This document shows, in pieces, positions 15,794 through 32,068 of a stretch of DNA of 64,000 bases. Source of the DNA: Polyangium spumosum. Lineage in GTDB: Bacteria > Myxococcota_A > Polyangia > Polyangiales > Polyangiaceae. The notes under the pieces are model-generated. The model searched no databases and was not told the DNA's origin. It saw nothing but the letters and a program-made list of their open reading frames with translations. A program made the translations under genes and the position numbers. The stretch spans positions 157,543 to 221,542 of the forward strand of contig NZ_WJIE01000011.1 of NCBI RefSeq assembly GCF_009649845.1. The letters are read 5' to 3'. Every line of letters begins with the position of its first letter. Position 1 is the first letter of the stretch.

Positions 15794-16867
15794 ATGTCCC
15801 GCAACAAGAAGCCTCAAGGCGGCCCGTCAACTACTGTCGCAGCAGTTGTTACCGGGGGGCGCTCGTCGACGGCTAAAGCTAAGGGAACCACAACATCTGC
15901 TAGCGGGCGTGCTGCCAAAGTCAGGGAGAGTTTAGACCCGAGTAAGACGTTAATGTCGATCAAACCGCTGCGGGACCTTTCCCAGCGCGCTCGCGTACAG
16001 CTGAAGGGGCTACTCCTGCTTTCAGAGCCGCACTGGCCCAGAGCTGCTGGCATCGGATTAAACCAAGAGTTTATCAGCGGGAGACCTGCTCCAATATTCG
16101 ACGCTGTGAACCCCCTCCTTCAGGAGAGCGTCGGGTTGGACCTTCAGCAAGTAGGGTGCTTCTCGACCGCGGACGCGTGCTTAAAGCTTCCTGCGAATGA
16201 CTTGGTTGACTTTTTATATGCCGCGCAGGCGTATCTCGTCCGCGAAGCTAACCGGACTTCCGGACGCACTGTCCCTATAGCGCCGGTCGAATTTGGACGC
16301 CGCGCACTCGAAATACTTACGTCCACCGATTCCAGCGATACTATAGACGCAGGCAAGGATATGAATCACGTTCTCGCTTTTATCAGTCACTCATCCAGGG
16401 ACAAGGAACTTGCCAAGGCACTGGTAGATTGCCTTGAAGCCTGCATCCAGTTCATAGGAGCGGAAAGCGCGATTCGCTGCACCTCTGTGGAGGGGCACCA
16501 ACTCGACCCAGGTGATCACGCAGGGGAAGTTCTTCGCCAAAACCTGGAGCAGTGTAAGGTTGTGCTTGGGCTCCTCACGAAGGAGGGTCTAAAATCAAGC
16601 TTTGTCACTATGGAGCTTGGAGCCGCATGGGCCCTTAAAAAAAGAACATGCGCACTGCTGACACGCGACGTGGCCTTTAGTCGCATTCCTGGGCCTTTGA
16701 GGGAGCGACACGCCATCAAAGTGGAGTCTGCCGAGCAAATGACGCAGCTGATGGAGTCGATCGCCAAAGAGACAGGCTTGCAAATGAGGTCTGCAACCAA
16801 GGTCGCGGCCGAAGTGAACCAGTTCGTGGCCAAGGCAGCTCGGCTAGCCGGCAAGCCGACAGGCTAG
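15794..16867 (+). CDS. TIR-domain effector protein
   Basis: A 357-residue protein. Residues 1-50 are basic and low-complexity, about 55-185 form a globular region I do not recognise, and about 190-310 form a TIR domain. TIR features seen are the first strand and loop (HVLAFISHSSRDKELAK, from residue 192) and the catalytic-glutamate helix SFVTMELGAAWALKK with Glu274. Many bacterial TIR domains with this glutamate cleave NAD+ to stop phage growth, so NADase activity is likely but not shown. The gene sits 6 bases after the small helical gene, just upstream of DISARM. Lower GC suggests transfer. The N-terminal region may be the sensor or an oligomerisation domain. Confidence 0.82.
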   Translation: MSRNKKPQGGPSTTVAAVVTGGRSSTAKAKGTTTSASGRAAKVRESLDPSKTLMSIKPLRDLSQRARVQLKGLLLLSEPHWPRAAGIGLNQEFISGRPAPIFDAVNPLLQESVGLDLQQVGCFSTADACLKLPANDLVDFLYAAQAYLVREANRTSGRTVPIAPVEFGRRALEILTSTDSSDTIDAGKDMNHVLAFISHSSRDKELAKALVDCLEACIQFIGAESAIRCTSVEGHQLDPGDHAGEVLRQNLEQCKVVLGLLTKEGLKSSFVTMELGAAWALKKRTCALLTRDVAFSRIPGPLRERHAIKVESAEQMTQLMESIAKETGLQMRSATKVAAEVNQFVAKAARLAGKPTG

Positions 16868-16936: not shown

Positions 16937-17170
16937 CTACCGCCGCTTCATGGCACGGAGTAGCTTGCCGACGGCATCGTGCGCGGCTCGCGCGGCGGCC
17001 GTGCTCTCATCCGCGTCCGACAGCAGTGCCAGAAGCCTTTCTGCCGCGTCGTGAGCCACCGCCGAGGCTTCAAAATCGCCCCAAGCCGCCGCCGTGACCT
17101 CTCCCTGGACGAGGACGGCGAGAAGGGTACTGCGTGGGTCCGCTCCAGGGATGCCCCAAAGGGCGGCCAC
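16937..17170 (-). CDS. Short hypothetical protein, intact copy of the flanking pair
   Basis: A 77-codon frame from GTG 17170. It is Ala-rich and helical, with ADPRSTLLAVLVQGEVTAAA and a basic end LLRAMKRR. The sequence at 14783-15091 is related, at roughly three quarters identity by eye. Together they bracket the TIR operon as direct copies in the same orientation. No family was recognised. Its 5' end overlaps a possible long extension of drmD on the other strand, which is one reason to start drmD later at 17257. Confidence 0.45.
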   Translation of the reverse strand: MAALWGIPGADPRSTLLAVLVQGEVTAAAWGDFEASAVAHDAAERLLALLSDADESTAAARAAHDAVGKLLRAMKRR

Positions 17171-17256
17171 GGGGTCCGAAGTGGCACCAACGCTCGCCAG
17201 CGGCGCCGATCCGTCGTCAGCAGGACGAGGATCCAGCGGGTTACGCCGGGTCAGGG

Positions 17257-20200
17257 GTGCTAGAACTGTTCTCGGGGAAAACCGCGATCCGGCCGAACCC
17301 CAGCCCCGACGACCCCCGGACCTTCGCGGCCTACCTCCACGCGCTGCGCTGGGGGTGCGTGACCTCCACCGATCCCACGCTTTTCCAGGCGCCGCTTCGC
17401 GCGGGCATCGTCCCGAAGAGCTACCAGCTCGAGCCGCTGCGCAAGGCCCTCGCGCTCCCGCGGGTGAACCTGTTCATCGCGGATGACGTCGGCCTCGGCA
17501 AGACCATCGAGGCGGGCCTCGTGCTTCAGGAGCTCTTGCTCCGCCAGCGTGTCCACCGCGTCGTCATCGCGGCGCCCGCATCGGTCGTCCTGCAGTGGCG
17601 TGACGAGCTCGGCCAGCGCTTCGGGCTCGCGTTTGCCGTCCTCGACAAGGCGTACGTGAACGCCCGGCGCCGCGAGCGTGGCTTCGGCGTGAACCCGTGG
17701 ACCACGCACCGGCATTTCCTGATCAGCCACAATCTCCTGCGTGACGAGGACTATCTCATCGGGCTTCGCGACTGGCTCGGCGACTTCTGCCCGGGCAGCC
17801 TCTTCATCCTCGACGAGGCGCACGTCGCGGCGCCCGCGTCCGAGAGCAAGTATGCGATCGACTCGCAGACGACGCGCGCGGTCCGCGACATCGCCCGGCG
17901 CTTCGAGCATCGCCTGTTTCTCTCGGCCACGCCGCACAATGGGCACTCGAACTCGTTCTCGGCGCTCCTCGAGATCCTCGACCCGCAGCGCTTCACGCGT
18001 GGCGTGCCCCCGAAAAACGCGAATGCGCTCAAGCCCGTGATGGTGCGGCGGCTCAAGGGGGAGTTGCGCAAGCACATCGGCTCGCAGATCCCCGAGCGTG
18101 AGGTGCGTCAGATCGATCTCGGTAATCTCCCGCCGGATACGCCCGAGATCCTCCTGTCCGAGAAGCTCGCCGAGTACACCGAGATCCTCGAACGACGTCT
18201 CGCCGCGGCGAGCAACCGGGCGAAGGCCGCCGGCAAGCTCGTCACCATTGCCCTCCAGAAGCGGCTCTTGTCGTCCGTCGAGGCGTTCGCCCGGACGCTC
18301 TCCGTGCACCGGAAGAGCGCGGCCAAGTCCCTCCTCGCCAGCGCGGCGAAGGCTCCGGCTGCCGTGCAAACGTCCCTCTTCGAGAGCGACGAGGACCTCA
18401 CGGACGAGGTGATCGCCGAGCTCGAAGACGTCGCCGTGGCCCGGGCGACGCAGGAAGGGGCCGCGGCTTCCGATGATGCGCGCGCTCAGGTCTTGCTCGA
18501 CGAGATGTCGGAGATCGCCGAGCGCGCGCGGGGGCTCTCGGATGCGAAGATTCGCTGGCTCGTCGGCTGGATTCGCGAGAATCAATGCCCCAAGGTCAAG
18601 GGGAAGGCCACCTGGCTCCCGCGTCGCATGCTCATCTTCACCGAGTATGTCGACACGAAGAATTACCTCGTCCGCGAGCTCGAAGCGGCGATCGCCGGGA
18701 CCGACCTCGCCGAGGAGCGGATCTTGACGCTCCACGGTGGAATGGACGAGGAGGCGCGCGAGCGGGTAAAGCAGGCGTTCAACGATGCCTCGCATCCGGT
18801 GCGGATCCTGATCGGCACCGACGCCGCGCGCGAAGGCGTGAACCTCCAGGCGCAATGTGCGGACCTGTTCCATTTCGATTTGCCGTGGAACCCGGGCCGG
18901 ATGGAGCAGCGCAACGGCCGCATCGACCGCATGCTCCAGCCGGAGAAGGTCGTGCGGTGCCATTACTTCGTTTACCCGCAGCGGCCCGAGGACGCCGTGC
19001 TCGCGGCGCTCGTCAAGAAGACGGAGCGCATTCGCAAGCAGCTCGGGTCTCTCGCCGACGTCGTCGAGCGTCGCCTGGAAAACAGCCTGAAGGACGGGAT
19101 CAGGCGCTCGCGGGCCTTGGAGCTCGCGAAGACGATCACCGAGGTCGTCCCCGAGGAGGGGCGTGATCCCGTCGTCGAGGAGGAGCTCGAGCAGGCCCGC
19201 GACAAGGAGATCGTCGCGCAACTCGAAGAGCTACAGAAGCTCGATCAGAAGGCCACGGAGCACCTCGATCTGAAGCCCGAACGGCTGCGGGACGTGGTGA
19301 ACGTGGGCTTGCGCCTCGCGAGCTTGCCGCCGCTCACCGAGAGGAAGGCGGCCACCGGCAGCTACGACGTGCCGCCGCTCGACAAGCTCGCCGGTACGGA
19401 TGCGACGTGGCGGGACATCATGGATACCCTTCGGGCGCCGCGCACGCGCAAGCTGCCCGAGTGGGAGTGGCGGGCGAAGAATCCCCCGCGGCCCGTGAGC
19501 TTCGAGCCTTCCACGACGCTCGCGTCCGAGACCGTGCAACTCCACCTCCAGCACAAGCTCACGCAGCGCGTCCTCGCCCAGTTCCGGGCGCAGGCGTTCG
19601 GGGAGGATCGGCTCTCGCGCGTGACCGTAGCCGTCGATGCGACGCACCGGCGCAATCGCGTGCTCGCGCTCGGGCGGCTCTCGCTGTATGGCGTGGGCGC
19701 GTCGCGCCTCCACGAGGAGATCCTGGTCGTCGCGGCGTACTGGTCGGAGGGGGACGATCCTTCCCGGCTCAAGGCATTCGAGACGGCCGAGGCCGAGGAG
19801 CGCGCGCTCGAGTCGCTGTTCGGTGTCCTCGGAAAGGAAAATCAGCTTAAGGTCGCGGACCACGTCGTCGAGAAGCTCATGCAATCGGCGCCGAAGGACG
19901 AGGATGCCCTCTGGGAGACGCTGAAATCGAAGGCTCTGCGGCGTATCTTCTGGGCCGAGGAGAAGCTGCGCGTGCGGGGGCGCGCCGAGGCCGCGGAGAT
20001 GGAGCGGATCCTGCTCGCGCAGAAGACCCTGATCGGCAAGGAGCTCGTGGACCGGAAGCAGCTCACGCTGCCGTGGGCGACGGACGAGGAAGAGCAGAAG
20101 CACCAGTTCGAGGCGGATACGCGCCACATGGAGAAGCGCGCCGCGGAGCTCGACAAGGAGCTCGAGCGGGAGCCGCAGCGGATTCGGGAGCAGTACGAGG

Positions 20201-20259
20201 TGAGGCACCACCGGCTGGAGCGGGTGGGGCTCGTGTATCTGTGGCCGGCGACGTCGTGA
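17257..20259 (+). CDS. drmD: DISARM SNF2-like helicase DrmD
   Basis: A 1000-residue SNF2-type helicase when started at GTG 17257. The first motor domain has Walker A GLGKTIEAG (from residue 79) and DEAH (about 186-189), with SATPHNGHSNSF as motif III. The second has TLHGGMDEEARERV, ILIGTDAAREGVNLQ and MEQRNGRIDRM (arginine finger). The C-terminal 400 residues are charged and helical. Together with the next genes this fits DrmD of class 1 DISARM, a phage-restriction system. The start is uncertain: an earlier GTG at 17134 would overlap the short minus-strand gene. It ends 19 bases before the methyltransferase gene, so the two form one transcription unit. Confidence 0.9.
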   Translation: MLELFSGKTAIRPNPSPDDPRTFAAYLHALRWGCVTSTDPTLFQAPLRAGIVPKSYQLEPLRKALALPRVNLFIADDVGLGKTIEAGLVLQELLLRQRVHRVVIAAPASVVLQWRDELGQRFGLAFAVLDKAYVNARRRERGFGVNPWTTHRHFLISHNLLRDEDYLIGLRDWLGDFCPGSLFILDEAHVAAPASESKYAIDSQTTRAVRDIARRFEHRLFLSATPHNGHSNSFSALLEILDPQRFTRGVPPKNANALKPVMVRRLKGELRKHIGSQIPEREVRQIDLGNLPPDTPEILLSEKLAEYTEILERRLAAASNRAKAAGKLVTIALQKRLLSSVEAFARTLSVHRKSAAKSLLASAAKAPAAVQTSLFESDEDLTDEVIAELEDVAVARATQEGAAASDDARAQVLLDEMSEIAERARGLSDAKIRWLVGWIRENQCPKVKGKATWLPRRMLIFTEYVDTKNYLVRELEAAIAGTDLAEERILTLHGGMDEEARERVKQAFNDASHPVRILIGTDAAREGVNLQAQCADLFHFDLPWNPGRMEQRNGRIDRMLQPEKVVRCHYFVYPQRPEDAVLAALVKKTERIRKQLGSLADVVERRLENSLKDGIRRSRALELAKTITEVVPEEGRDPVVEEELEQARDKEIVAQLEELQKLDQKATEHLDLKPERLRDVVNVGLRLASLPPLTERKAATGSYDVPPLDKLAGTDATWRDIMDTLRAPRTRKLPEWEWRAKNPPRPVSFEPSTTLASETVQLHLQHKLTQRVLAQFRAQAFGEDRLSRVTVAVDATHRRNRVLALGRLSLYGVGASRLHEEILVVAAYWSEGDDPSRLKAFETAEAEERALESLFGVLGKENQLKVADHVVEKLMQSAPKDEDALWETLKSKALRRIFWAEEKLRVRGRAEAAEMERILLAQKTLIGKELVDRKQLTLPWATDEEEQKHQFEADTRHMEKRAAELDKELEREPQRIREQYEVRHHRLERVGLVYLWPATS

Positions 20260-20278
20260 ATCGGGGACTCGAAGCGTG

Positions 20279-23200
20279 ATGGACACCAACGAACGCCTCC
20301 ACACCGAATGGCTCGGCATGGCGCAGCCCGAGGGGCTCGTCGTCACCACCGCCGCCCTCAAGGCCGCCGAGGCGAACATCACCTGGCCGGTGATCGAGCT
20401 CCAGGCCACGCTGCGCGAGCTCGCCGGGGAACGGAAGCACATCGCCGATCTGCGCGGCTTCCTCCGCGACATCCTCGACTGGGGAGGCGAGCAGCTCGTC
20501 TCCGGCGCCGAGCTCCCGCACTCCCTCCGCGTGCATCTCGACGGCGGCGAGTGGCTCGTCCCGACGTTCGCGCTCCGCTCGATCGACGAGCCGGAGACGT
20601 TCGTCCTCCTCGTCGAGGAGACGCACCGGAAGGAGCTCGACGCCGCCTCGGACGACAAGCGCTGGAGCGCCACGCCCCACCAGCGCTTCGAGCGGCTCCT
20701 GCGCGAGACGGGGGTGCCCATGGGGCTCCTCTCGAATGGGCGCGATTTCCGGCTCGTGTACGCGCCCAAGGGAGAGAGCGCCGGGTGGGTGACGTTCCGG
20801 CTCGCCGAGATGCTCAGCGTGGACGGGCGTCCGCTGCTCGGCGCGATGCACATGCTCCTCAACGAGCGGCGTATCCTCTCGCTGGAGGACAAGAAGCGCC
20901 TCGGCGCGCTGCTCGCCGCGAGCCGCGAGTACCAGAACACCGTCTCGAACAAGCTCCGCGAGCAGATCCTCGCCGCCTTGCGCGAGCTGCTCGGCGGGTT
21001 CGAGCGGGCGGATCGGATCGCCGAGGGCGCCATTCTCGGGGACGTGCGGCGCGACCATCGGCAGGAGATTTACACGGGCCTCGTCACCGTGCTCATGCGT
21101 ATGGTGTTCGTCCTGTACGCCGAGGAGCGGGGCCTACTCCCGATGGAGTCGGACCTCTACGCGAGCGGCTACTCGCTCTCGCGCCTGCATGCGCTGCTCA
21201 CGGAGGATCGCAATCGGTACGGCGACACGATCGACGATCGTTATGGCGCGTGGGGCCGGGTGATCACGCTGTTCCGGCTCCTGCACGACGGCGTGCGCGC
21301 AGCCGATGGCCTCTCCCTTCCGCCGCGGAAGGGCTCGTTCTTCGATCCGGACGCGTTCCCTTTCCTCGAAGGCCGCCCGCGGGGCGCGGTGCGGCAGGCG
21401 GGGGAGATCCTCGACTTGCCGCGCGTCAGTGACGGCGTGGTCCATCGCGTGCTCGATCGGCTGCTCGTGCTCGATGGCGAGCGGCTCCAGTACAAGGGGC
21501 TCGACGTCGAGCAGATCGGGAGCGTGTACGAAGGGCTGATGGGCTTCGAGATCGAGGTGGCGGAGGGGGATTCGCTTTGCCTGATGCCCGAGCACGTGGT
21601 GGTGGATCTCGAATCACTCGTGCGGCTCTCGGGCGCGGAGCGGGTGAAGGAGATCAAGGCGCGGGCGAACCTCGATTTGAAGGACAAGGCCGGGGCCGAG
21701 GTGAAAAACGCCAGCAGCGTGGAGGCGCTCGCGGCGGCGCTCGGGAAGAGGGTTTCGCCGAGGCAACCGGGGATCCTGGCGAAGGGGTCTTTGTATTTGC
21801 AGCCCGGGGAGGAGCGGCGGCGGACGGGGTCGCATTACACGCCGCGGTCGCTCACGTTGCCGATCGTGGAGACGACGCTGCGGCCGGTGCTGGAGCGGCT
21901 CGGGAAGGAGGTGCGGCCGGAGGGGATCCTCGACCTGAAGATCTGCGATCCTGCGATGGGGTCGGGAGCGTTTTTGGTGGAGGCGTGCCGGCAGCTCGCG
22001 GACAAGCTGGTGGACGCGTGGCGGCGGACGGGGACGATGCCGGAGCTGCCGCGGGACGAGGATCCGGTGCTGCATGCACGGCGGTTGATCGCGCAGAAGT
22101 GCATTTACGGGGTGGACAAGAACCCGCTCGCGGTGGACCTGGCGCGGCTGTCGATGTGGCTCGTGACGTTTGCGAAGGAGCATCCGTTCACGTTTGTGGA
22201 TCATTCGCTGCGGCATGGGGATTCGCTGGTCGGGCTTTCGAAGGAGCAGATCGCGAGCCTTTCGCTTGATGTCTCGAAGGGGAAGCAGATCGAGACGGTG
22301 CGGGCGGTCGTCTCCGAGAAGGTGAAGGAGGCGGAGGCGCTGCGGGCGCGGATTCATGCGATGGGGGATCCGCCGGAGAACGACGAGCTGCGGGAGCTGT
22401 GGGAGGCGGCGAACGAGGCGCTCGGGACGGTGCGGATGCTGGGGGATCTGGTCGTCGCGGCGTACTTCGCGGAGGGTTCGGACAAGGCGCGGAAGAAGGC
22501 GATCGAGGACGTCGGGGTGAAGGTCGGGGTGTGGCTCGCGACGGGGCAGTTCGACGCGGAGCTACGGGGGATGGTGGCGGGGCTGCGGGAGGGGGAGCGG
22601 GCGGTGCCGGCTTTCCATTGGGAGATCGAGTTTCCGGAGGTGTTTGGGCGGGGGAATCCGGGGTTCGATTGTTTCGTGGGGAATCCGCCGTTCGCCGGTA
22701 AGAATACGATTGGCGCATCGAGCGGCGCCATGTACATCGAGTGGCTGGTACTCAGCGCCGCCGGGTCGAATGGCAAGAGTGATTTGGTCGGCTACTTTTT
22801 CCGACGCGCCTTCGAGCTGACACGTGATCGAGGGACCATGGGTATGATTGCCACGAACACGCTGTCGCAGGGAGATACGCGGGCGAGTTCGCTCACGCCG
22901 ATCCTGCTGAATGGTGGATCGATCTACGCTGCGAGGCGACGCGTGACATGGCCACACGCTGCCGCGGTGATCGTCAGCATCGTGCACATCATCAAACGGG
23001 CCGTCCCTGTCGACTGCAATCTCGACGGCAAGGTCGTCGGGCGAATATCTGCATTCTTGTTCGACGGGCAGAACGACACGGACCCGGCCCGTCTCGTGAT
23101 CAACGAGAACAAGAGCTTTCAAGGTAGCAACATCAGCGGTAAAGGGTTCACGTTCGACGACCAAACGGACGGCGCCTCACCGGTTGCGCGGATGAGAGAA

Positions 23201-24178
23201 GTCATCGCGGCGAACCCCGCGAGCCAGGATCGAATCTTCCCGTACATCGGGGGCGAGGAGCTGAACTCGAGCCCGGCCCAAAGCCCTCATCGTTGGGTCA
23301 TCCGGTTTGGTCGACTCGGCGAGGAAGAGTGTCGAGACAAATGGCCGGGGCTAATGGCGATTGTCGAGGCTCTGGTAAAGCCCGTCCGCGAAGCAGGACC
23401 TCGGAATCCGCAGGCAGACTACTTGCGTGCTCGGTGGTGGCATTGGCACACGGAGCGTCCCAGCCTCTACGAGGCGATGGAGTCACGAAAGTTGGTGCTC
23501 GCCAACTCCCAGGTCAGTGCACACTTAGCCTTTGCTGCTCAGCCGACAGATCGGGTCTTCGGCCACACCTTAAACATATTCGTACTGCCGATTGAACGTG
23601 GCTTTGCGATTCTGCAATCACGGGTCCATGAGTGCTGGGCGCGGTTCTTCGGCTCGTCGATGAAGGACGACCTTCGCTACACCCCCTCCGACTGCTTCGA
23701 AACCTTCCCCTTCCCGCCGAACTACGAACAAAATCCCACCCTCGAATCCATCGGCCGCGAATACTACGGCTTCCGCGCCGCCCTCATGATCGAGAACAAC
23801 GAGGGCCTCACCAAGACCTACAACCGCTTCCACAACCCCGACGAGCGCTCACCCCAAATCAAAAAACTCCGCGACCTCCACGCCCAGATGGACCGCGCCG
23901 TCCTCGACGCCTACGGTTGGACCGACATCCAGCCCGTCTACGACTTCCGGCCCCAGCTCGACGAGTCCATCCGGTTCACCTGGGGCGAGGACACGCGCGA
24001 CGAGGTCCTCGCGCGGCTGCTCGAGCTCAATCGCGTGATCGCCGCGAAGGAGGCCGAGGAGGCGAAACAGGCCGAGGCGAAGAAGCCCACCAAGAAGGGC
24101 GGCGGAGGGAAGAAGCGGGGGAAGAAGGACGAGGCGACGCTGGAGTTGCCCATGGGGAAGGGCGGGGAGAAGGCGTAA
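20279..24178 (+). CDS. drmMI: DISARM adenine-specific DNA methyltransferase DrmMI
   Basis: A 1299-residue protein like the large N6-adenine methyltransferases of class 1 DISARM. The SAM-binding motif DPAMGSGAFL begins at Asp557 and the catalytic NPPF is at residues 802-805. Residues 1-500 form an N-terminal domain of restriction-enzyme-like type. The part after NPPF (about 810-1135) should be the target-recognition region, and a Lys-rich tail ends the protein. The methyltransferase marks host DNA so the other Drm proteins spare it. Codon use changes abruptly inside the gene: bases about 22695-23690 are less GC-rich than the rest, suggesting exchange of the recognition domain. The ATG at 20279 follows GTG 20276; either could be used. 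Confidence 0.9.
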   Translation: MDTNERLHTEWLGMAQPEGLVVTTAALKAAEANITWPVIELQATLRELAGERKHIADLRGFLRDILDWGGEQLVSGAELPHSLRVHLDGGEWLVPTFALRSIDEPETFVLLVEETHRKELDAASDDKRWSATPHQRFERLLRETGVPMGLLSNGRDFRLVYAPKGESAGWVTFRLAEMLSVDGRPLLGAMHMLLNERRILSLEDKKRLGALLAASREYQNTVSNKLREQILAALRELLGGFERADRIAEGAILGDVRRDHRQEIYTGLVTVLMRMVFVLYAEERGLLPMESDLYASGYSLSRLHALLTEDRNRYGDTIDDRYGAWGRVITLFRLLHDGVRAADGLSLPPRKGSFFDPDAFPFLEGRPRGAVRQAGEILDLPRVSDGVVHRVLDRLLVLDGERLQYKGLDVEQIGSVYEGLMGFEIEVAEGDSLCLMPEHVVVDLESLVRLSGAERVKEIKARANLDLKDKAGAEVKNASSVEALAAALGKRVSPRQPGILAKGSLYLQPGEERRRTGSHYTPRSLTLPIVETTLRPVLERLGKEVRPEGILDLKICDPAMGSGAFLVEACRQLADKLVDAWRRTGTMPELPRDEDPVLHARRLIAQKCIYGVDKNPLAVDLARLSMWLVTFAKEHPFTFVDHSLRHGDSLVGLSKEQIASLSLDVSKGKQIETVRAVVSEKVKEAEALRARIHAMGDPPENDELRELWEAANEALGTVRMLGDLVVAAYFAEGSDKARKKAIEDVGVKVGVWLATGQFDAELRGMVAGLREGERAVPAFHWEIEFPEVFGRGNPGFDCFVGNPPFAGKNTIGASSGAMYIEWLVLSAAGSNGKSDLVGYFFRRAFELTRDRGTMGMIATNTLSQGDTRASSLTPILLNGGSIYAARRRVTWPHAAAVIVSIVHIIKRAVPVDCNLDGKVVGRISAFLFDGQNDTDPARLVINENKSFQGSNISGKGFTFDDQTDGASPVARMREVIAANPASQDRIFPYIGGEELNSSPAQSPHRWVIRFGRLGEEECRDKWPGLMAIVEALVKPVREAGPRNPQADYLRARWWHWHTERPSLYEAMESRKLVLANSQVSAHLAFAAQPTDRVFGHTLNIFVLPIERGFAILQSRVHECWARFFGSSMKDDLRYTPSDCFETFPFPPNYEQNPTLESIGREYYGFRAALMIENNEGLTKTYNRFHNPDERSPQIKKLRDLHAQMDRAVLDAYGWTDIQPVYDFRPQLDESIRFTWGEDTRDEVLARLLELNRVIAAKEAEEAKQAEAKKPTKKGGGGKKRGKKDEATLELPMGKGGEKA

Positions 24179-24181
24179 ATC

Positions 24182-24610
24182 GCTCCAAAGAGAGGTCCGG
24201 ACGTCCCGAGTCGCCTCCGCACCCGCGCCAAAGAGAGGTCGGGACGCCCGGAGATGTCTTCGCACCTGCGCCAAGGAGAGGTCGGGACGTCCCGAGGTGG
24301 CTTCGCACCTGCGCCAAGGAGAGCTCGGGACGTCCGGAGGTGGCTTCGCACCTGCGCCAAGCGATGGTCGAGACGTCGGGAGGTGGCTTCGCACCTGCGC
24401 CAAAGCCAGGTCGGGACGTCCGGAGGTGGCTTCGCACCTGCGCCATGCTCGTCTCGGGACGCCCGGAGGTGGCTTCGCACCTGCGCCAAAGCCAGGTCGG
24501 GACGTCCGGAGGTGGCTTCGCACCTGCGCCATGCTCGTCTCGGGACGCCCGGAGGTGGCTTCGCACCTGCGCCAAAGCCAGGTCGGGACGTCCGGACCTG
24601 GCTTTGGCGC
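24182..24610. repeat. 43-bp tandem repeat array, about 10 units
   Basis: Units begin at 24182, 24225, 24268, 24311, 24354, 24397, 24440, 24483, 24526 and 24569, exactly 43 bases apart. The shared part is GGTGGCTTCGCACCTGCGCC plus GGGACG. A block of about 12 bases varies: from 24397 on it alternates between AAAGCCAGGTC and ATGCTCGTCTC, giving an 86-bp higher-order period. Each unit contains small palindromes (AGGTG/CACCT around GCTTCG, and GGACGTCC). Frames through the array on both strands are open only because of composition. The array follows the drmMI stop by 4 bases. Function unknown. Confidence 0.95.
24569..24610 (+). terminator. Perfect 16-bp hairpin closing the repeat array
   Basis: GCGCCAAAGCCAGGTC (24569-24584) is followed ten bases later by its exact complement GACCTGGCTTTGGCGC (24595-24610), then GTTTTC. 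This very stable hairpin appears because the last array unit is inverted. It could end the drmD-drmMI transcript, since a short T-run follows, but it could equally be a recombination or structural feature. Confidence 0.5.
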
Positions 24611-24706
24611 GTTTTCTGTGAGAGGTCGCACCGGTTTGCTCGTCCGAGGGACGTCTACGGGCGTGCCCTCAGGGCCGCGGTGACAGGAGTTCGCCGGTCC
24701 AGGTTT

Positions 24707-24735
24707 TTGGCGTACTAGTTTGGATCATGTACCCT
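24707..24735 (+). promoter_or_regulatory. Possible sigma-70-type promoter for the TPR/PEGA gene
   Basis: TTGGCG (24707-24712), a 17-base spacer and TACCCT (24730-24735) lie about 17 bases before the ATG at 24752. The -35 is good and the -10 is poor. Listed because this gene probably has its own promoter after the repeat array and hairpin. Visual match only. Confidence 0.3.
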
Positions 24736-24751
24736 CGGTGGCCGAGGTGAC

Positions 24752-25834
24752 ATGATGACGCCTACACGGTTCTTGGGGTCCGTGCTCGCGCTCCTCGTCT
24801 GCGCGGCGCCACGGGTGGTCTTCGCACAGGATGTCGCCATGGCCGAAGCGCTCTTCAATCGCGGCGTGGAGCACATGCAGCGGGGGCGGTTCGCCGCGGG
24901 ATGTCCAGCGATCGCGGAGAGCATGAAGCTCGACCCACTGCCAGGGACACAGCACACCCTCGCCGATTGCCTGGCGAGCGCCGGGAAGCTCGTCGGGGCC
25001 GTGGAGGCATACGATGAGTTCCTGAAAATGGTCGAGGCGCTGCCCACGTGGAAGCGCGGGAGGTACCTCGAGCGCGTCGAAAAGGCCACGCAGAAGAAGG
25101 AGGAGCTGGCTCCCGTGATCCCACGGCTCACGTTGCGGTTTCCGGGAGGCGGGGCGCGAGGCGTCCGGGTCTTTCTGGATGACACCGAGGTGTTCGAGGG
25201 GTCGCGTGGTGTCGCGCGGCTTGTGGATCCGGGTGAACACATCGTGGTGATGGTCGCGCCGGGGCAGCCACGCGTGGAGCGCCAGGTCACGCTGGCCAAG
25301 GGGGAGGCGAAGACGGTGGATCTCGATGCGTCGAACGTGCCCGTGGAGACCACGCGTGAGCCGTTTTCCAGGTGGTACACGCGCAAGCCCATCGCGTGGG
25401 TCGGCTCGGGCGTCACCGTCGTCGGCCTCGGCCTCGGCCTGGGGTTCACCCTCGGCGCGAGCGCCGCGATCGACAGGGCCAACGCGCGCGCGGACGCGAT
25501 CCGCGACCAAGCCGCGGCCGATCCCATCACGAACTACGGCAACAACAAACCCTGCGGCTCGCCCGACACGAGCGGCTCCGATCTGCCGGGCTACGAGGCT
25601 GCGTGCGACGTGCTCCGCAAGGACATTGCCGACTACAACACGAACGCCACCGCCGCCACCGTCGGTTGGGTGGTCTTCGGCGTCGGCGCGATCGGCACCG
25701 GCCTCTTTACGCTCTTCGATTGGTACCTGCCGAAGAAGACCTCGACCACGGCGACGAACGGCCCGAAGGTCCTCGCCATCACGCCAAGCTTCTCCTCGAC
25801 GTACCAGGGCGTCGGCGTCGTCGGCACGTTCTGA
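24752..25834 (+). CDS. TPR/PEGA-domain exported protein inserted in the DISARM locus
   Basis: A 360-residue protein with a signal peptide (LALLVCAAPRVVFAQ), a TPR-like region (about 28-110, NRGVEHMQRGRFAAG), a PEGA-type region (about 120-195) and two membrane helices (about 215-240 and 305-328). It has the same domain plan as 1089-2168, so it belongs to a host family of envelope proteins. It is not a known DISARM component. It lies between drmMI and drmA, where class 1 DISARM operons normally continue directly. Whether it is a passenger or has a part in this DISARM variant is open. Start at 24752; an in-frame ATG follows at 24755. A GAGGTGA ribosome site precedes it. Confidence 0.85.
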   Translation: MMTPTRFLGSVLALLVCAAPRVVFAQDVAMAEALFNRGVEHMQRGRFAAGCPAIAESMKLDPLPGTQHTLADCLASAGKLVGAVEAYDEFLKMVEALPTWKRGRYLERVEKATQKKEELAPVIPRLTLRFPGGGARGVRVFLDDTEVFEGSRGVARLVDPGEHIVVMVAPGQPRVERQVTLAKGEAKTVDLDASNVPVETTREPFSRWYTRKPIAWVGSGVTVVGLGLGLGFTLGASAAIDRANARADAIRDQAAADPITNYGNNKPCGSPDTSGSDLPGYEAACDVLRKDIADYNTNATAATVGWVVFGVGAIGTGLFTLFDWYLPKKTSTTATNGPKVLAITPSFSSTYQGVGVVGTF

Positions 25835-25917
25835 TCTCGCGCCTTGATGGGTAACGAGGATTCACGCCGCCGGAAGCAGTTCCATCCTTCGCCGCTCTCG
25901 GTGTAACCTCCCGGACG

Positions 25918-28900
25918 ATGGCCACCCCCGCCACCGTCCGCGCCGATCTCGTCTACACCCTCCGCGACGATCTCCTCGGCCCCGACCCCGACGACCCTCG
26001 CGACGCCGCGCACGCCACCGAGACCCTCACCTCCTCGCCCGCGCACTGGTACCTGACGGGTTTCCTCGCGCCCACGGGTCAGAAGGCCGAGGAGAAGGAG
26101 GACGAGGAGGCCGGGGATGACCTCTCCTCGGCGCTCGACGACGCGTCCGAAGGCGAGGCCGATGCGCCCGCCGCGCGTCGCCCCGTGTTCCCGTCGAGCA
26201 TGGGCCTCAGCGTCCTCGTGCGCGCGGCGAGCAAGCGCCTCACGGTGCGCGTCACCTTCGGCACCTACGCTCCCGCCTCTCCGCCCCCTTCTCCACGAAG
26301 TGGAGAGGGGTTGGGGGTGAGGCCCGACAGTGACATCCCCCCCGCCGAAGACGCCCGCTCCCGCCACCACTGGGTCCGCACGCCCTACGAGCACACCGTC
26401 ACGATTCCGCTCGACGACAAACCGCGGTTCGACGTGCTGCTCGAAGGATCGGGCGGCGTGGTGTTGCGTGTCGTGCTCCGGCCCGTCCCGGAGACGGAGC
26501 TCGCGTTCGTCGAGAAAGGGACGCGGTATGCGACCATCTTCCTCGTCAACCAGCGCGACCCCATCCCGCGCCCGGAGGAGGACCGAGGGTTCATCTTTCA
26601 GACCCGATTCACGGTTTCCTGCACCGAGGATTTCGTCCCGCGGCCGAACCTGCGCGGGGCGAGCCCGGACGCCGACATCGACGAGAAGGTCGGCGACCTG
26701 CTCTATCGCGATTGTTTCGAGTATGCGGTGGGCCACGGCGTCTCCACGGTCGCCAAGGTGCAGGGGCAGGGCAGGGACCCGTTTTGCAATGAGGTCTCCA
26801 CGACGTGGCTGCCCACGGCCGAGATCGAGAAGGTCGAGCCGTCGGAGGTCAAAGGTGTCACCCTCGAAATGCGCGAGCTCGCCAAGATCGAGGACGCCGA
26901 GACGCTGAAGGACAAGGTCGGGAAGCTCGTGACCGCCTACGGCGAATGGATCGAGGCGCAGGCGGACACGGACCTGGACGGGCACGCGACGCGGATGGAT
27001 ACGGCGGCGGGATTGCTCGACGCCGCACGCCGCGCGAAGGCGCGAATCGAGCGAGGCATTCGTATCCTCGGGGAGAGCCCTGCCGCGCTCGAGGCGTTCC
27101 GCGTCGCGAACGACGTGATGGCCGATGCGCAGACCCAGCGGGAGAAACGAAAGGATCCGGCGAGCGTCGCGTCGGGCAAATTCGTCCCGAAGTGGCGTCC
27201 GTTCCAGCTCGCGTTTTTGCTGATGAACGTCGCCGCGCAGGTGGAGCCGACGAGCGACGAGCGCGACTGGGTGGACCTCATCTTCTTCCCGACGGGCGGC
27301 GGTAAAACCGAGGCGTACCTCGGCCTCGCGGCCTTCACGCTCGTCTTGCGCAGGCTCACGCACCCGGGGATCGGCTCGGCGGGCGTGACGGTGCTCATGC
27401 GGTACACGCTCCGCCTGCTCACGCTCGACCAGCTCGAGCGCGCGGCGGCGCTGATCTGCGCACTCGAACTGCGCCGGCGGAAGGATCCGCAGAAGCTCGG
27501 GCCGCAGCGGTTCTCCATTGGCCTCTGGGTCGGCAAGAGCGCGACGCCGAACCGCTTCGGGACGGATCAGGATCACGACGAGTCGACAGCGCTGAACCGG
27601 GTGAAGAAGTTCCGGGAGGACCCGAAGAAGAACCCTTCGCCCATCCCGCTCGACCGGTGCCCCTGGTGCGGAGAATCGTTCCATCAGGACACGTTCGAGC
27701 TGAAGCCCGATTTCAAGGCGCCGGACCGGCTGCGGGTGGTCTGCACGGGGAAATGCGAGTTCCGCTGGCAGAAGGACCACCCCGAGGGGATCCCGATCCT
27801 CGCGGTGGACGACGAGATCTATCGCGAGTTGCCCTGTTTCCTGATCGCCACCGTCGACAAGTTCGCCGGGCTGCCGTGGGTTGGCAAGACGGGGCTCCTG
27901 CTGGGCAAGAACGTCACCCACCACAACCAGCTCGGCTTTTACGGCCCGGCGGAGATGCCCCCGACCGCGCGCCCCTTGCCCGAGCCGCTCTTGCCGCCGG
28001 ACCTCATCATCCAGGACGAGCTGCACCTCATCTCGGGCCCGCTCGGGACGATGGTCGGGCTTTACGAGACGGCGATCGACCATTTGACGACGCGGCAGAT
28101 TGGCGAGAAGCGGGTGCGGCCGAAGATCGTCGCGTCCACGGCGACGGTGCGGCGGGCGCAGGCGCAGATTCGAGCGCTCTTTGGTCGATCGGAGGTCGAG
28201 GTCTTCCCGCCGCCAGGTCCGAATCGAAGGACCTCGTTTTTCGCCGAGACGGTGCCGACCACGAAGGCGAATGCGCGCCAGTACGTGGGCCTCTCGGCCC
28301 CGGGCCGCAGCCAGAAGGTGCTGCTCATGCGGACGTACATCGCGCTGCTTTCTGCCGCGCAGCGCACGTTCCTCGAGGACCCGAAGGCCGCGGACCCGTA
28401 CATGACGCTCGTCGGGTACTTCAATAGCTTGCGCGAGCTCGGGGGCTCGCAGCGCATCGTGGAGGAGGAGGTCCGCGCGAGGCTCATGCGCGCGAGCCTG
28501 CGTCATCGCGCGGGAGAGACGAGCGCGCATTTCGTCGATCGGAAGATCGCATTCGAGTGCGTAGAATTGACGAGCCGGCGAACGACGGACGAGGTGAAGG
28601 AGGCCAAGGAGCGGCTGGAGCAGGTCCACTTCGAGAAATCGAAGAAGCACGCGCCGGTCGACGTTGCGCTCGCGTCGAACATGATCTCCGTCGGCGTCGA
28701 CATCCAGCGATTGGGTCTCATGGTCGTCTGTGGTCAACCCAAGACGACGGCGGAATACATCCAGGCCACGAGCCGCGTCGGCCGTGACGCGAAGAGGCCC
28801 GGGCTCGTGGTGACCCTGCTCAACGCGCACAAGCCACGCGACCGCTCGCATTTCGAGCACTTCGCCGCGTACCATCAATCCTTCTACCGTGGCGTAGAGG

Positions 28901-29403
28901 CCACGAGCATCACGCCCTTCTCGCCTCGCGCAGTGGACCGCGGCATCGCCGGTCTCGTCGTGGCGCTGGCCCGGCTCGGCGATCCGCGCCTCACGGCACC
29001 CGACGCCGCGGAAAAAGTTGGCGACGTCAAGACCGAGCTCGGGTTCATCGGTGACGTGATCGCGAACCGCGCCGAGGCCCACCGGAAGGGGCAAACGGGG
29101 GACGACCCGATCGATGACGTGAAGGCCGTGCTGCGGGCGAGGATCGACGCGTTGCTCGATAGCTGGACCCGCGTCGTGAAGGATGATCCCACGAAGGACG
29201 GGCTCGCTTATCAGAAATACGAAGAGCAATCCTCGAAGAGGCCGCTGCTCCGGATGCCTCTCGATGAGGACCTCGCGAAGTGCAAAGACCACGAGAAGGT
29301 CTTCGTGGCGAACCGCTCCATGCGTGACGTCGAGGGCACGACGGACGTGTACGTCGCAGACCTGCGGGCGAGCCAGAACGCTTTGGCGAGGGCCGAATCA
29401 TGA
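25918..29403 (+). CDS. drmA: DISARM helicase DrmA
   Basis: A 1161-residue protein matching DrmA. It has a 450-residue N-terminal region, then a helicase core with Walker A FFPTGGGKTEAY (about 456-466), DELH as the Walker B variant (about 699-702), and ASTATVRRA. The second motor has VDIQRLGLMVVCGQP and QATSRVGRDAKRPGLVV (arginine finger). Zn-binding CPWCGESF / CTGKCEF pairs lie between (about 580-620). With DrmB it forms the core complex that engages unmethylated phage DNA. It overlaps drmB in an ATGA junction. A hairpin repeat at 26284-26322 is read through in frame as SPRSGEGLGVR, an odd insertion in the N-terminal region. The 83 bases upstream must hold its promoter if drmD-drmMI transcripts stop at the array. 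Confidence 0.92.
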   Translation: MATPATVRADLVYTLRDDLLGPDPDDPRDAAHATETLTSSPAHWYLTGFLAPTGQKAEEKEDEEAGDDLSSALDDASEGEADAPAARRPVFPSSMGLSVLVRAASKRLTVRVTFGTYAPASPPPSPRSGEGLGVRPDSDIPPAEDARSRHHWVRTPYEHTVTIPLDDKPRFDVLLEGSGGVVLRVVLRPVPETELAFVEKGTRYATIFLVNQRDPIPRPEEDRGFIFQTRFTVSCTEDFVPRPNLRGASPDADIDEKVGDLLYRDCFEYAVGHGVSTVAKVQGQGRDPFCNEVSTTWLPTAEIEKVEPSEVKGVTLEMRELAKIEDAETLKDKVGKLVTAYGEWIEAQADTDLDGHATRMDTAAGLLDAARRAKARIERGIRILGESPAALEAFRVANDVMADAQTQREKRKDPASVASGKFVPKWRPFQLAFLLMNVAAQVEPTSDERDWVDLIFFPTGGGKTEAYLGLAAFTLVLRRLTHPGIGSAGVTVLMRYTLRLLTLDQLERAAALICALELRRRKDPQKLGPQRFSIGLWVGKSATPNRFGTDQDHDESTALNRVKKFREDPKKNPSPIPLDRCPWCGESFHQDTFELKPDFKAPDRLRVVCTGKCEFRWQKDHPEGIPILAVDDEIYRELPCFLIATVDKFAGLPWVGKTGLLLGKNVTHHNQLGFYGPAEMPPTARPLPEPLLPPDLIIQDELHLISGPLGTMVGLYETAIDHLTTRQIGEKRVRPKIVASTATVRRAQAQIRALFGRSEVEVFPPPGPNRRTSFFAETVPTTKANARQYVGLSAPGRSQKVLLMRTYIALLSAAQRTFLEDPKAADPYMTLVGYFNSLRELGGSQRIVEEEVRARLMRASLRHRAGETSAHFVDRKIAFECVELTSRRTTDEVKEAKERLEQVHFEKSKKHAPVDVALASNMISVGVDIQRLGLMVVCGQPKTTAEYIQATSRVGRDAKRPGLVVTLLNAHKPRDRSHFEHFAAYHQSFYRGVEATSITPFSPRAVDRGIAGLVVALARLGDPRLTAPDAAEKVGDVKTELGFIGDVIANRAEAHRKGQTGDDPIDDVKAVLRARIDALLDSWTRVVKDDPTKDGLAYQKYEEQSSKRPLLRMPLDEDLAKCKDHEKVFVANRSMRDVEGTTDVYVADLRASQNALARAES
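26284..26322 (+). repeat. REP-like palindromic repeat inside drmA
   Basis: The arms CCCCTTCTCCAC and GTGGAGAGGGG surround GAA, followed by TTGGGGGTGAGG. This matches the general look of the short hairpin repeats scattered through many GC-rich proteobacterial genomes, which often encode the peptide PSPRSGEG when they insert into genes. Here the translation stays in frame (SPRSGEGLGVR), so drmA is not broken. Attribution to a mobile REP family is inferred from the pattern. Confidence 0.6.
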
Positions 29404-31289
29404 GCAAGGATCTCTGGAAGGTCGGGGTGAAGTGGCGAGAGAAGCGGCCCGAGGGCACGATCCGCCATAGCCAGATCATCACGACGTACGGCCCGGGGGC
29501 GCTGGTCGATTTCGTCGACGACGCGGCGATCGTCGCGGGGCTCTCGTGGTGGGCGAAGGGCGAGCAGATCACGGAGGATCGGCTGCTCGCGATGCTGTCG
29601 AAGGAGCCCGATTTCCGGAACGTGAAGCTCCACGCGCCCCCAGCATCCGGGCGGGAGCTCGAGTCGCCCGATCGAAAGTGGATCAAGGCATTCCGGTTCC
29701 CGGAGTGGTTCATTTGCCAGAACGAGCATTGCTGGGAGGACGGCGGGCTCGCGCCACGCAAGGATGGCGCGAAGCCGAGGCGGCTTCTGCGGATCAACCA
29801 GCTCGACGGGACGGGGCACAAGTGCAAGGGAGGGAAGGGGAAGGCGAGCAAGGTGCAGCCGGTGCGCTTCACGCGTGCGTGCCCCGCCGGGCACCTCGAC
29901 GACATCGCGTGGATCGATCTCGCCCATCTCCGCCGCAAGGAGGCCGACCCGTGCCGCCGCCCGATTCTGTGGATCGACGAGGCCGCGGCGAGCGGCGACC
30001 TGGACGACGTGCGGCTTTCGTGCACCGGATGCGGCGCGACGATTCGCATGAGTTACGCCACGCGGCGCATGGTGGAGGACCATCCTCCGCTCGGCTATTG
30101 CGACGGAAGGCGGCCCTGGCTTGGGACCGACGAGAAGGTCGAATGCAAAGCACCGATGCGCTTCTTGCTGCGCTCGGCGTCCCATGCGTATTTCTCGGTG
30201 CCGGCGAGCGTCATTCACATCCCGGACCGCGACGCCGCCATGCGCGAGAAGGTGACGAGCGTCCACGATACCATCAAGGGCGCGGACGACGCCGACGATG
30301 TGCGGTTCTTCCGCAAGAAGGTCGAGGCCGTGCGCGTCGCGCTCGAAGGGATGTCCGATGACGCCGTATTCGCGGAGATCCTCCGTCGGCGCGAGGGGCA
30401 AACGGTCGCGCGGAAGAAGATCAAGCAAGCGGAGCTCGAGGTCCTGCTCGCCGGGGACGAGTCCCAGAACAACGAGCGTTTCGCCCTGAAGAACGTGCCC
30501 CTGCCGAAGCACCGGAAGGGCATCCTGTCGCGGATCGGCAAGGTGGTGCTGCTTCCCCGCCTGACCGAGGTTCGCGCGCTCTGCGGCTTCACGCGGTTCG
30601 AGCAACGAACGACGGACATCGACGGCGAGCTCGACATCGGGGCCGAGGTGGCCCGGCTCGACGAGCCGGTGACATGGCTCCCCGCCGTGGAGAACCCGGG
30701 CGAAGGTTTTTTCTTTTCGCTGGACGAATCCGCCCTTCTCGCTTGGCTTCGCGACAAACCTGGCGTGGAAGCGCGCGACCGGCTCATCAAGGCCGGTTTC
30801 AAAGCATGGCAGGAGCAGCGCGACGACCGGAAGAAGGCGAAGGACGACTTCGCGAACGTGCGTTACGTCCTCCTGCACTCGCTGGCGCACTTGCTGATCA
30901 CCGCCGTGTCCCTGGAGTGTGGTTACTCGGCGAGCTCGATCCGGGAGCGCATCTATGCGGGTGCCGGGGGCTCGGGCATTCTTCTCTACACGGCGTCGCC
31001 CGGGGCCGAGGGCTCGCTCGGTGGACTCGTGGAGGTGGGGCGGCACCTCGAGCGGTATCTCGCACAGGCCCTCGACCTGGGCCGGCTTTGCTCGAACGAT
31101 CCCGTATGTGCAGCGCATCTACCCGACCACGAGGTCGGTGGCGGAGACCGTTACCTCGAAGGGGCGTCGTGCCACGGATGCTTGCTCATCTCGGAGCCTT
31201 CGTGCGAGCGAATGAACCTGTACCTCGACCGCACCTTGGTCGTCGGGACCGTCGAATCCTCGGACGCTGCGTTCTTCGAGGGCGTGTGA
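29400..31289 (+). CDS. drmB: DISARM protein DrmB (DUF1998)
   Basis: A 629-residue protein with the C-terminal DUF1998 domain: LLHSLAHLLITAVSLECGYS, SSIRERIYAG, GILLYTASPGAEGSLGGLV, and the closing GASCHGCLLISEPSCERMN with its cysteines. The middle part has further Cys/His groups (CQNEHC, CTGCG) that may bind zinc. DrmB works with DrmA in phage-DNA recognition. The start overlaps the drmA stop by 4 bases (ATGA) and the end overlaps drmC by 4 (GTGA), so drmA-B-C are translationally coupled. Confidence 0.92.
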   Translation: MSKDLWKVGVKWREKRPEGTIRHSQIITTYGPGALVDFVDDAAIVAGLSWWAKGEQITEDRLLAMLSKEPDFRNVKLHAPPASGRELESPDRKWIKAFRFPEWFICQNEHCWEDGGLAPRKDGAKPRRLLRINQLDGTGHKCKGGKGKASKVQPVRFTRACPAGHLDDIAWIDLAHLRRKEADPCRRPILWIDEAAASGDLDDVRLSCTGCGATIRMSYATRRMVEDHPPLGYCDGRRPWLGTDEKVECKAPMRFLLRSASHAYFSVPASVIHIPDRDAAMREKVTSVHDTIKGADDADDVRFFRKKVEAVRVALEGMSDDAVFAEILRRREGQTVARKKIKQAELEVLLAGDESQNNERFALKNVPLPKHRKGILSRIGKVVLLPRLTEVRALCGFTRFEQRTTDIDGELDIGAEVARLDEPVTWLPAVENPGEGFFFSLDESALLAWLRDKPGVEARDRLIKAGFKAWQEQRDDRKKAKDDFANVRYVLLHSLAHLLITAVSLECGYSASSIRERIYAGAGGSGILLYTASPGAEGSLGGLVEVGRHLERYLAQALDLGRLCSNDPVCAAHLPDHEVGGGDRYLEGASCHGCLLISEPSCERMNLYLDRTLVVGTVESSDAAFFEGV

Positions 31290-32068
31290 AGTTCGACGCG
31301 TGGCTCGACGAGGCGACCGCGTCGGACCTCGCGGCGCTTTCGCAATGCCTCGTGGACGGCCGTATCCCGTTCCCGCCGCGCCGGAGCTCGGTCCAGCTCG
31401 CGGGCTTCGGCGAGAGCGCGGTGGCCTTCCTGGAAGGGCTCCAGGGCACCGACCCGAAGGTCATCGCCTGGATGCTCGAGCGCCTTGCCGAGGAGCGGAG
31501 GCACGCCGATGATCGTTACGCGAGCATGGTGCGGCTCGTGTGGAGCGGCGCGAGCGAGCGGACGCAGGGCTTCCGGGATACCCGCGAGGTGCTCGACGGC
31601 CTCTTCGCGAAGGCGGAGCGGCAGGTGCTCATCTCGACGTATGTGATCCACAACGGCCGAAGCGTATTCGCGCCGCTGGCGAGGCGTATCCGGGAGCGTC
31701 CGGGGATCGAGGTCGAGCTGTACGTGAACCTGCCGTCGAGAACGGGCCTTCCCGCCGATGAGCGGGCCGATGTCGCGGCATACCGGGAGACATTCGCACG
31801 GGAGCACTGGCCCGAGGATTTGCTCTTGCCGGCTATGTATTACGATCCCGAGAGCCGGAAGCTCGACGCTTCACGCGCGAGCCTGCACGCGAAGTGCGTG
31901 GTCGTCGACGCGCGCTGGGCGTTCGTGACGTCGGCGAATTTCACGGAGGCGGCGCAGGAGCGAAACATCGAGGCGGGCGTATTGCTGGATCACCCGAGGG
32001 TGGCCGAAGCGCTGGCGGGGAGGTTCCGGGCGTTGCGGGAGGCGGGGAGGCTGCGGGTCTTGGGGTGA
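31286..32068 (+). CDS. drmC: DISARM phospholipase-D-like protein DrmC
   Basis: A 260-residue protein beginning at GTG 31286, which overlaps the drmB stop. The C-terminal half contains the phospholipase D motif SLHAKCVVVDARWAFVTSANFTE (His-x-Lys and Asp from about residue 199; longer piece shown only for orientation, key residues are HxK and D). A strand set (VLISTYVIHN) precedes it. Members of this superfamily include nucleases, but DrmC is reported as dispensable for DISARM activity. No other catalytic copy is present, so a dimer would be needed for activity. Confidence 0.88.
   Translation: MKFDAWLDEATASDLAALSQCLVDGRIPFPPRRSSVQLAGFGESAVAFLEGLQGTDPKVIAWMLERLAEERRHADDRYASMVRLVWSGASERTQGFRDTREVLDGLFAKAERQVLISTYVIHNGRSVFAPLARRIRERPGIEVELYVNLPSRTGLPADERADVAAYRETFAREHWPEDLLLPAMYYDPESRKLDASRASLHAKCVVVDARWAFVTSANFTEAAQERNIEAGVLLDHPRVAEALAGRFRALREAGRLRVLG

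What the first reader, a model, noticed from the sequence alone, without database searches (positions are those of the whole stretch)
17257..32068. Complete class 1 DISARM locus split after drmMI
All five components (DrmD, DrmMI, DrmA, DrmB, DrmC) are intact by motif inspection. In class 1 DISARM these genes normally run together, but here drmMI and drmA are separated by about 1.74 kb that holds a repeat array and an envelope-type gene. drmA-B-C are translationally coupled, while drmD-drmMI would need separate transcription.
Basis: partly seen in the sequence, partly recalled or inferred. Interest (0 to 1): 0.65.

Follow-up and report, generated by a model that had tools for sequence, protein, structure and literature searches.

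The report
Class 1 DISARM split after drmMI
A complete bacterial anti-phage system (class 1 DISARM) has an unrelated gene and a repeat array wedged between its DNA-marking genes and its attack genes; comparison shows that this very junction is often opened in relatives and often holds genes resembling other anti-phage genes.

Summary
drmD, drmMI, drmA, drmB and drmC are full-length, in order and on one strand (17134-32068), with 1,739 bp between drmMI and drmA. That gap holds a 9.8-copy, 43-bp tandem array ending in a strong terminator-like hairpin, and one gene for a probably exported TPR protein without a PADLOC match. The premise that class 1 genes normally run together does not hold at this junction. 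Among 67 class 1 loci where it could be measured, 39 have at least 500 bp there, against 3 of 85 at drmD-drmMI, 0 of 59 at drmA-drmB and 0 of 34 at drmB-drmC. The nearest relative found (about 70% identical, another genus of the family) is split at the same point by 3.9 kb of unrelated DNA with a candidate defence gene. On a DrmA tree the state changes at least 18 times. In 24 of 35 slots scanned, cargo matches a PADLOC model (Septu PtuA and PtuB, IetS, an Argonaute, GmrSD type and others). So this is an ordinary, probably functional class 1 DISARM, probably in two transcription units, opened at a recurrent cargo slot; here the cargo is host-lineage DNA, not a known defence gene.

The parts
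17134..20259 (+). drmD (SNF2/RapA-like helicase); start GTG 17134 or 17257
   Evidence: PADLOC DrmD E 7.6e-287; Pfam SNF2-rel_dom, Helicase_C
20276..24178 (+). drmMI (N6-adenine methyltransferase, Eco57I/MmeI-like)
   Evidence: PADLOC DrmMI E 0; Pfam Eco57I, MmeI_Mtase, N6_Mtase, MmeI_TRD; N803-P-P-F and D558-P-A..G562-S-G-A-F invariant in 12 aligned homologues
24185..24604 (+). 43-bp tandem array, 9.8 copies, imperfect-palindrome units
   Evidence: similar arrays elsewhere in the genome and genus
24569..24610 (+). closing near-perfect palindrome followed by TTTT: terminator-like hairpin
   Evidence: two 21-nt arms, 95% complementary; RNA fold of 24560-24630 -43.3 kcal/mol, z -6.25, 0 of 200 shuffles as low; NOT listed by the simple terminator scan
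24752..25834 (+). slot gene: TPR protein with a signal-peptide-like start (read by eye); N and C halves have relatives in two different host-lineage genes; no PADLOC match
   Evidence: TPR_2 E 6.3e-6, 26.4 bits, just under the Pfam cut-off 27; 0 PADLOC families; halves:
25918..29403 (+). drmA (YprA-family helicase)
   Evidence: PADLOC DrmA E 2.9e-288; Pfam Helicase_C
29400..31289 (+). drmB (DUF1998/MZB)
   Evidence: PADLOC DrmB E 1.2e-79, Pfam MZB E 4.5e-10
31286..32068 (+). drmC (PLD nuclease; HxK(x)4D read by eye in the sequence)
   Evidence: PADLOC DrmC E 6.5e-56, Pfam PLDc_2 and PLDc; sequence

Best explanation
This is a complete, probably functional class 1 DISARM made of two tight modules: the self-marking module drmD-drmMI and the coupled effector module drmA-drmB-drmC. 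They are probably made from two transcripts: drmD-drmMI ending at the hairpin that closes the 43-bp array, and drmA-B-C read with, or from upstream of, the slot gene. The junction between the modules is a recurrent cargo slot of class 1 DISARM, because DNA that lands there leaves both modules whole. Elsewhere it is often occupied by genes matching defence families. Here it holds a probably exported TPR protein and a repeat array, both typical of the host lineage, most likely passengers with no part in restriction. Shown: gene content, order, couplings, hairpin prediction, junction statistics, repeated change of the split state, different slot contents in the nearest relative. Inferred: two transcripts, functionality, tolerance of insertion as the cause, neutrality of the passenger.
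For: Matches of all five genes. In 56 loci where three junctions were measured, drmMI-drmA is >=500 bp in 28, drmD-drmMI in 1, drmA-drmB in 0; the 27 loci discordant between drmMI-drmA and drmD-drmMI all go one way, p 1.5e-8. Nearest relative G200 (DrmA 68-69%, DrmB 68%, DrmC 64%, DrmD 70%): 3,924 bp between drmMI and drmA, with no similarity to the window's gap beyond matches of 12-19 bases and, next to drmA, a gene matching PDC-M03B over its length, E 6e-70. At least 18 changes of state on a 61-row DrmA tree, 12 forced by starred branches. Sister loci keep intact drmMI ends and drmA starts in both states, e.g. L062 (4-bp ATGA overlap) and L076 (1.6 kb). In 7 of 39 slots the largest predicted ORF lies on the opposite strand. 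Second DISARM of this genome split by 2.3 kb (L056). Slot protein halves and array have relatives in all 6 genomes of the genus.
Against: No expression or restriction data. The hairpin is followed by only four T and is not listed by the simple terminator scan; the same scan found no sigma-70-like promoter in 24000-26000. The slot gene ends 83 bp before drmA on the same strand, so it could belong to the drmA-B-C transcript and have a role. Order is not fixed everywhere: A-B-C-MI in L065/L117 and in G088, so modules also move in other ways. Defence enrichment of the slot over ordinary flanks is not significant in my small control (8 of 10 against 3 of 10, p 0.07).
Confidence: 0.75

Rival explanations
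1. The slot gene is a functional accessory of this DISARM, such as an envelope-anchored sensor or regulator, kept beside drmA for co-expression.
For: Same strand, 83 bp upstream of drmA. In other loci HTH-IrrE regulator-like genes lie in the slot upstream of drmA.
Against: No PADLOC match. 50 further matches in its own genome (51 with itself, E <= 1e-3). Searched in 101 loci (L056, L061-L155, L182-L186), its only match at E <= 1e-3 is L182, which showed no drm match above 60 bits; no match above 50 bits in the loci, the nearest relative G200 included.
Confidence: 0.15
2. The split has inactivated the system: drmA-B-C are cut off from their promoter and the locus is decaying.
For: A strong hairpin follows drmMI; no promoter-like site was found.
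Against: All five frames are open and full-length and couplings are intact. Loci with slots of 2-9 kb keep recognisable drm genes. The nearest relative keeps long drmA, drmB and drmC matches with a 3.9-kb slot.
Confidence: 0.1
3. Assembly artefact or false join in the array.
For: Tandem repeats can break assemblies; a similar array lies about 80 kb away on the same contig. In G200 drmD with the start of drmMI and drmMI's end with drmA lie on different contigs, so this region does assemble badly there.
Against: Array and gene lie inside one contig, and DrmA and DrmMI keep the usual order and strand. The same junction is split in 38 other loci.
Confidence: 0.04

Closest known systems
Class 1 (type I) DISARM
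   Same: Five core genes drmD, drmMI, drmA, drmB, drmC in order on one strand; tight drmD-drmMI and drmA-drmB-drmC
   Different: drmMI and drmA are separated by 1.7 kb with an array and an unrelated gene; but 39 of 67 class 1 loci measured here are split at that point
Defence genes embedded in other defence loci (for example BrxU in BREX, or the 'HEC' genes of Hma loci: recalled, from no call)
   Same: Extra genes carried between core genes of a defence system
   Different: In this window the embedded gene has no defence match; in the DISARM loci measured, insertion is nearly confined to one junction between two modules

Membership tests
Class 1 (type I) DISARM | DrmA, DrmB, DrmC, DrmD and DrmMI all present (PADLOC definition, figure-legend passage of PMC9252829) | tested here: met
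Class 1 (type I) DISARM | drmE absent (same definition) | tested here: inconclusive
   The rows shown for the six ORFs hold no DrmE (best 25 families shown for three of them); the rest of the window was not scanned with PADLOC
Class 1 (type I) DISARM | Genes close together on one strand | tested here: met
   17134-32068, + strand, one 1.7-kb interruption
Class 1 (type I) DISARM | Restriction of phage and methylation of host DNA | not testable with these tools
   needs experiment
CRISPR array (considered for the 43-bp repeat) | Conserved repeats separated by unrelated spacers | tested here: not met
   The whole 43-bp unit repeats head to tail at 85% match

The most novel reading that the evidence does not exclude
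The drmMI|drmA junction is a general nested-cargo slot of class 1 DISARM: a permissive point between the self-marking and effector modules that repeatedly gains and loses other systems, so that unknown genes found there (for example the AAA + metallo-beta-lactamase-like pair shared by L067 and L068, or the beta-CASP gene of L105) are candidates for new defence genes. The exported TPR gene of this window would be one such candidate.
Probability: 0.6. Interest if true: 0.6.

Novelty: new member of a known kind. Interest (0 to 1): 0.42.

Why it matters
For this locus alone, little: it is another class 1 DISARM. The comparison matters more. If class 1 DISARM has one preferred insertion point, that point separates methylation from attack, suggests the two modules can be expressed apart, and gives a simple place to look for unrecognised defence genes. 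It also warns against calling split loci broken.

Tried and rejected
The longer drmC ORF (from 30674) was rejected: the best DrmC model matches from residue 217, and the upstream part overlaps drmB in another frame. Long open frames that seemed to fuse drmD with drmMI in L061 and L069 were rejected, because the two alignments lie in different frames (coordinates). A CRISPR reading of the array was rejected. A plasmid source for the gap was sought and not found (0 matches among 72,556 plasmid records). G200 carries drmD and the start of drmMI on one contig and the end of drmMI with drmA-B-C on another; that both are one locus is likely, not shown.

Flank control: I scanned 10 of the 17 upstream flank genes that one search found (19 loci tried, 2 without); 3 of 10 have a PADLOC match, against 8 of 10 slots of the same loci, Fisher p 0.07. 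Several slot proteins were scanned in some loci against one flank protein each, so this control leans towards the slot.

Literature: nothing on a cargo slot of DISARM came up in the held library by searches (listings seen). The founding DISARM paper (PMC5739279) is not held, so it may describe such genes; I did not see it. Of PMC9142583, PMC12458937, PMC8565338, PMC9252829 and PMC7205518 I saw found passages only.

Full report
The observation. PADLOC and Pfam scans confirm the five class 1 DISARM proteins in order on the + strand: drmD 17134-20259 (or from GTG 17257), drmMI 20276-24178, drmA 25918-29403, drmB 29400-31289, drmC 31286-32068. The drmA/drmB (ATGA) and drmB/drmC (GTGTGA) overlaps were read in the sequence. 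The 1,739-bp gap contains a 43-bp tandem array at 24185-24604 (9.8 copies) that begins 6 bases after the drmMI stop, and an ORF at 24752-25834.

The host. The window lies in a 10.76-Mb genome of 61 contigs. Genome G082 is scored as the same family; its contig stretch L063 is identical, over the 900 bases tested, to a record titled Polyangiaceae bacterium SJ329 (L079). The host is therefore inferred to belong to that family. The same genome has a second class 1 DISARM on contig C8 (L056), order D-MI-A-B-C, with about 2.3 kb between drmMI and drmA. That slot holds an HD-domain protein with a dGTPase-like PADLOC match (E 5.6e-10), on the opposite strand.

The comparison set. Two duplicate rows (L079, L117) were left out of the counts. 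Not all junctions lie on every contig. At least 500 bp were found at drmMI-drmA in 39 of 67, at drmD-drmMI in 3 of 85, at drmA-drmB in 0 of 59 and at drmB-drmC in 0 of 34 (drmC counted only where tblastn with this drmC found it). Of the 67, 22 have 60 bp or less and 6 lie between. An earlier pass with ORFs printed 66 loci, again 39 split. In the 56 loci with the first three junctions measured, split counts are 28 (drmMI-drmA), 1 (drmD-drmMI) and 0 (drmA-drmB). Loci whose contig ends before drmA are left out, which works against long slots: for two of them more DNA was fetched, and drmA lies about 9 kb (G267) and about 11 kb (G192) beyond drmMI. Against a fixed order, L065/L117 and G088 have A-B-C before MI, and L118 shows no drmA within 10 kb.

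The nearest relatives. A DrmA search over 183 genomes of the order found G200, another genus of the same family, at 69%. Its drmD is 70%, drmB 68%, drmC 64% identical. Its drmMI lies in two pieces on two contigs, each about 70-71% identical. Between the drmMI end and drmA lie 3,924 bp without similarity to the window's gap except matches of 12-19 bases. Directly upstream of drmA is a gene matching the candidate defence family PDC-M03B (E 6e-70). Of the other stretches fetched for this check, G298 is split by about 3.9 kb (its drmA reads in two frames), G208 by about 1.3 kb, G162 by about 10 kb. G260 (DrmA 58-61%) has only an end piece of drmMI about 1.1 kb before drmA, its main drmMI match being on another contig. 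G082 shows no drmMI within 2.2 kb of drmA, and G088 is rearranged. In G212, of the host's own genus (DrmA 47%), drmMI and drmA on one contig are about 7.7 kb apart. These loci are not in the 67.

History of the split. A quick maximum-likelihood tree of DrmA needs at least 18 changes between split and tight over 61 rows, 12 forced by starred branches; shuffled labels need 20.3 on average, and 95 of 500 shuffles are as low. So the state turns over almost freely. Six rows with short DrmA pieces (L080, L093, L106, L120, L124, L138, all split) were dropped. The tree is quick (LG+G4, SH-aLRT only), one row is under half filled, and G200 is not in it. The count cannot tell gain from loss, so the ancestral state is open. 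In 20 loci compared at the junction, drmMI ends and drmA starts are intact in both states; tight junctions can overlap, as in L062 (ATGA) and L127 (TGATG).

What fills the slot. Of 41 slots (the 39 plus G267 and G192), 33 had at least one protein scanned with PADLOC, and so had the slots of G200 (L226) and G298 (L229): 35 in all. In 24 of 35 a protein matches a model at E <= 1e-5. In 11 none does: window, L067, L068, L075, L077, L105, L115, L122, L125, G267, G192. Not every slot protein was scanned, ORFs were called by a simple rule, and these are model matches, not system calls; some are weak. The strongest include PtuA and PtuB of Septu (L069), IetS beside an AAA ATPase (L106), an Argonaute (L100), GmrSD type (L078), PDC-S01 (L080), PDC-M28B (L120), PDC-M56A (L076), NsnB (L116), PDC-S03 (L083), HEC-05 (L128), PDC-M70B (L149), PDC-M03B (G200) and a Fic protein (L123). 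Eight loci of Alphaproteobacteria (class recalled from the record titles: L114, L119, L121, L130, L135, L136, L137, L144) share one cluster of slot proteins (transitive links, which also catch short ORFs of L077 and L115); its two scanned members are HTH-IrrE proteins with RmrA-model matches (L114, L130). Slots also hold RHS-repeat genes (G267), a SIR2-STAND protein (G192, L115) and a transposase (L115). As a control, 3 of 10 upstream flank genes match PADLOC against 8 of 10 slots of the same loci (p 0.07): suggestive only.

This slot. The slot protein starts like a signal peptide (read by eye in the translation) and has a TPR match just below the Pfam cut-off. Its halves have different relatives. 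The first 199 residues are 55% identical to a gene of G214 (49% over a longer alignment). Residues 200-360 are 67% identical to the end of a different gene, which is present in all 6 genomes of the genus, this one included. It has 50 further matches in its own genome. The array too belongs to the lineage: all 6 genomes, this one included, have similar stretches, and in 17 of 17 array loci examined TRF finds period 43, though unit sequences differ (these loci were picked by similarity to this array). The closed palindrome seen here is largely this genome's own: with up to 3 mismatches it occurs in 3 of 6 genomes, 21 times here and once each in two others. By contrast the DISARM genes have no close match in the genus (DrmA: G212 47%, G196 41%, no match in the other three at E <= 1e-60). 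So DISARM that is foreign or rare in the genus encloses DNA typical of the genus. The array ends in a near-perfect palindrome before TTTT that folds at -43.3 kcal/mol, z -6.25; I read it as a likely terminator of drmD-drmMI, although the simple scan does not list it.

Mechanism. In published DISARM work (passages of PMC9142583), methyltransferases are thought to mark host DNA, and DrmAB to sense unmarked DNA. The junction drmMI|drmA therefore separates marking from attack. I infer that both modules can be transcribed apart, which the 7 of 39 slots whose largest ORF faces the other way support, and that insertion there is tolerated whereas insertion in drmD-drmMI or in the coupled drmA-B-C rarely is. 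Transcription and activity remain untested.

Verdict. The feature is real, the five-gene call is right, and the split is an instance of a frequent arrangement with exchangeable contents. The locus is a new member of a known kind; the recurrent slot is the part worth following.

Noticed in passing
window 24185-24604; L162, L168, L011, L157-L161, L163-L165, L169-L173: Family of tandem arrays in the genus with period 43 in 17 of 17 loci examined but differing unit sequence; in this genome the unit is about a 34-bp imperfect palindrome plus 9 bp. Function unknown.
   Followed up: partly
window 15794-16867: TIR-domain protein gene upstream of drmD (Pfam TIR_2 E 3.2e-9).
   Followed up: no
window 14787-14983 and 16941-17137: A 197-bp direct repeat (75% identical) lies on both sides of the TIR gene, with a further 75-bp tandem duplication at 14928-15070.
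   Followed up: partly
L056 (G000:C8:372100-391900): Second class 1 DISARM in the same genome, also split between drmMI and drmA.
   Followed up: yes
L067:3680-6942, L068:3650-6908: Two proteins shared as a pair in two slots: in L068 a weak AAA match and a metallo-beta-lactamase-like protein; the larger protein has no PADLOC match in either locus. Candidate defence pair.
   Followed up: partly
L065/L117 and L228 (G088): Rearranged DISARM with drmA-B-C before drmMI.
   Followed up: no
L227 (G260:C7): An end piece of drmMI about 1.1 kb before drmA-B-C, with the main drmMI match on another contig: remnant or assembly break.
   Followed up: no
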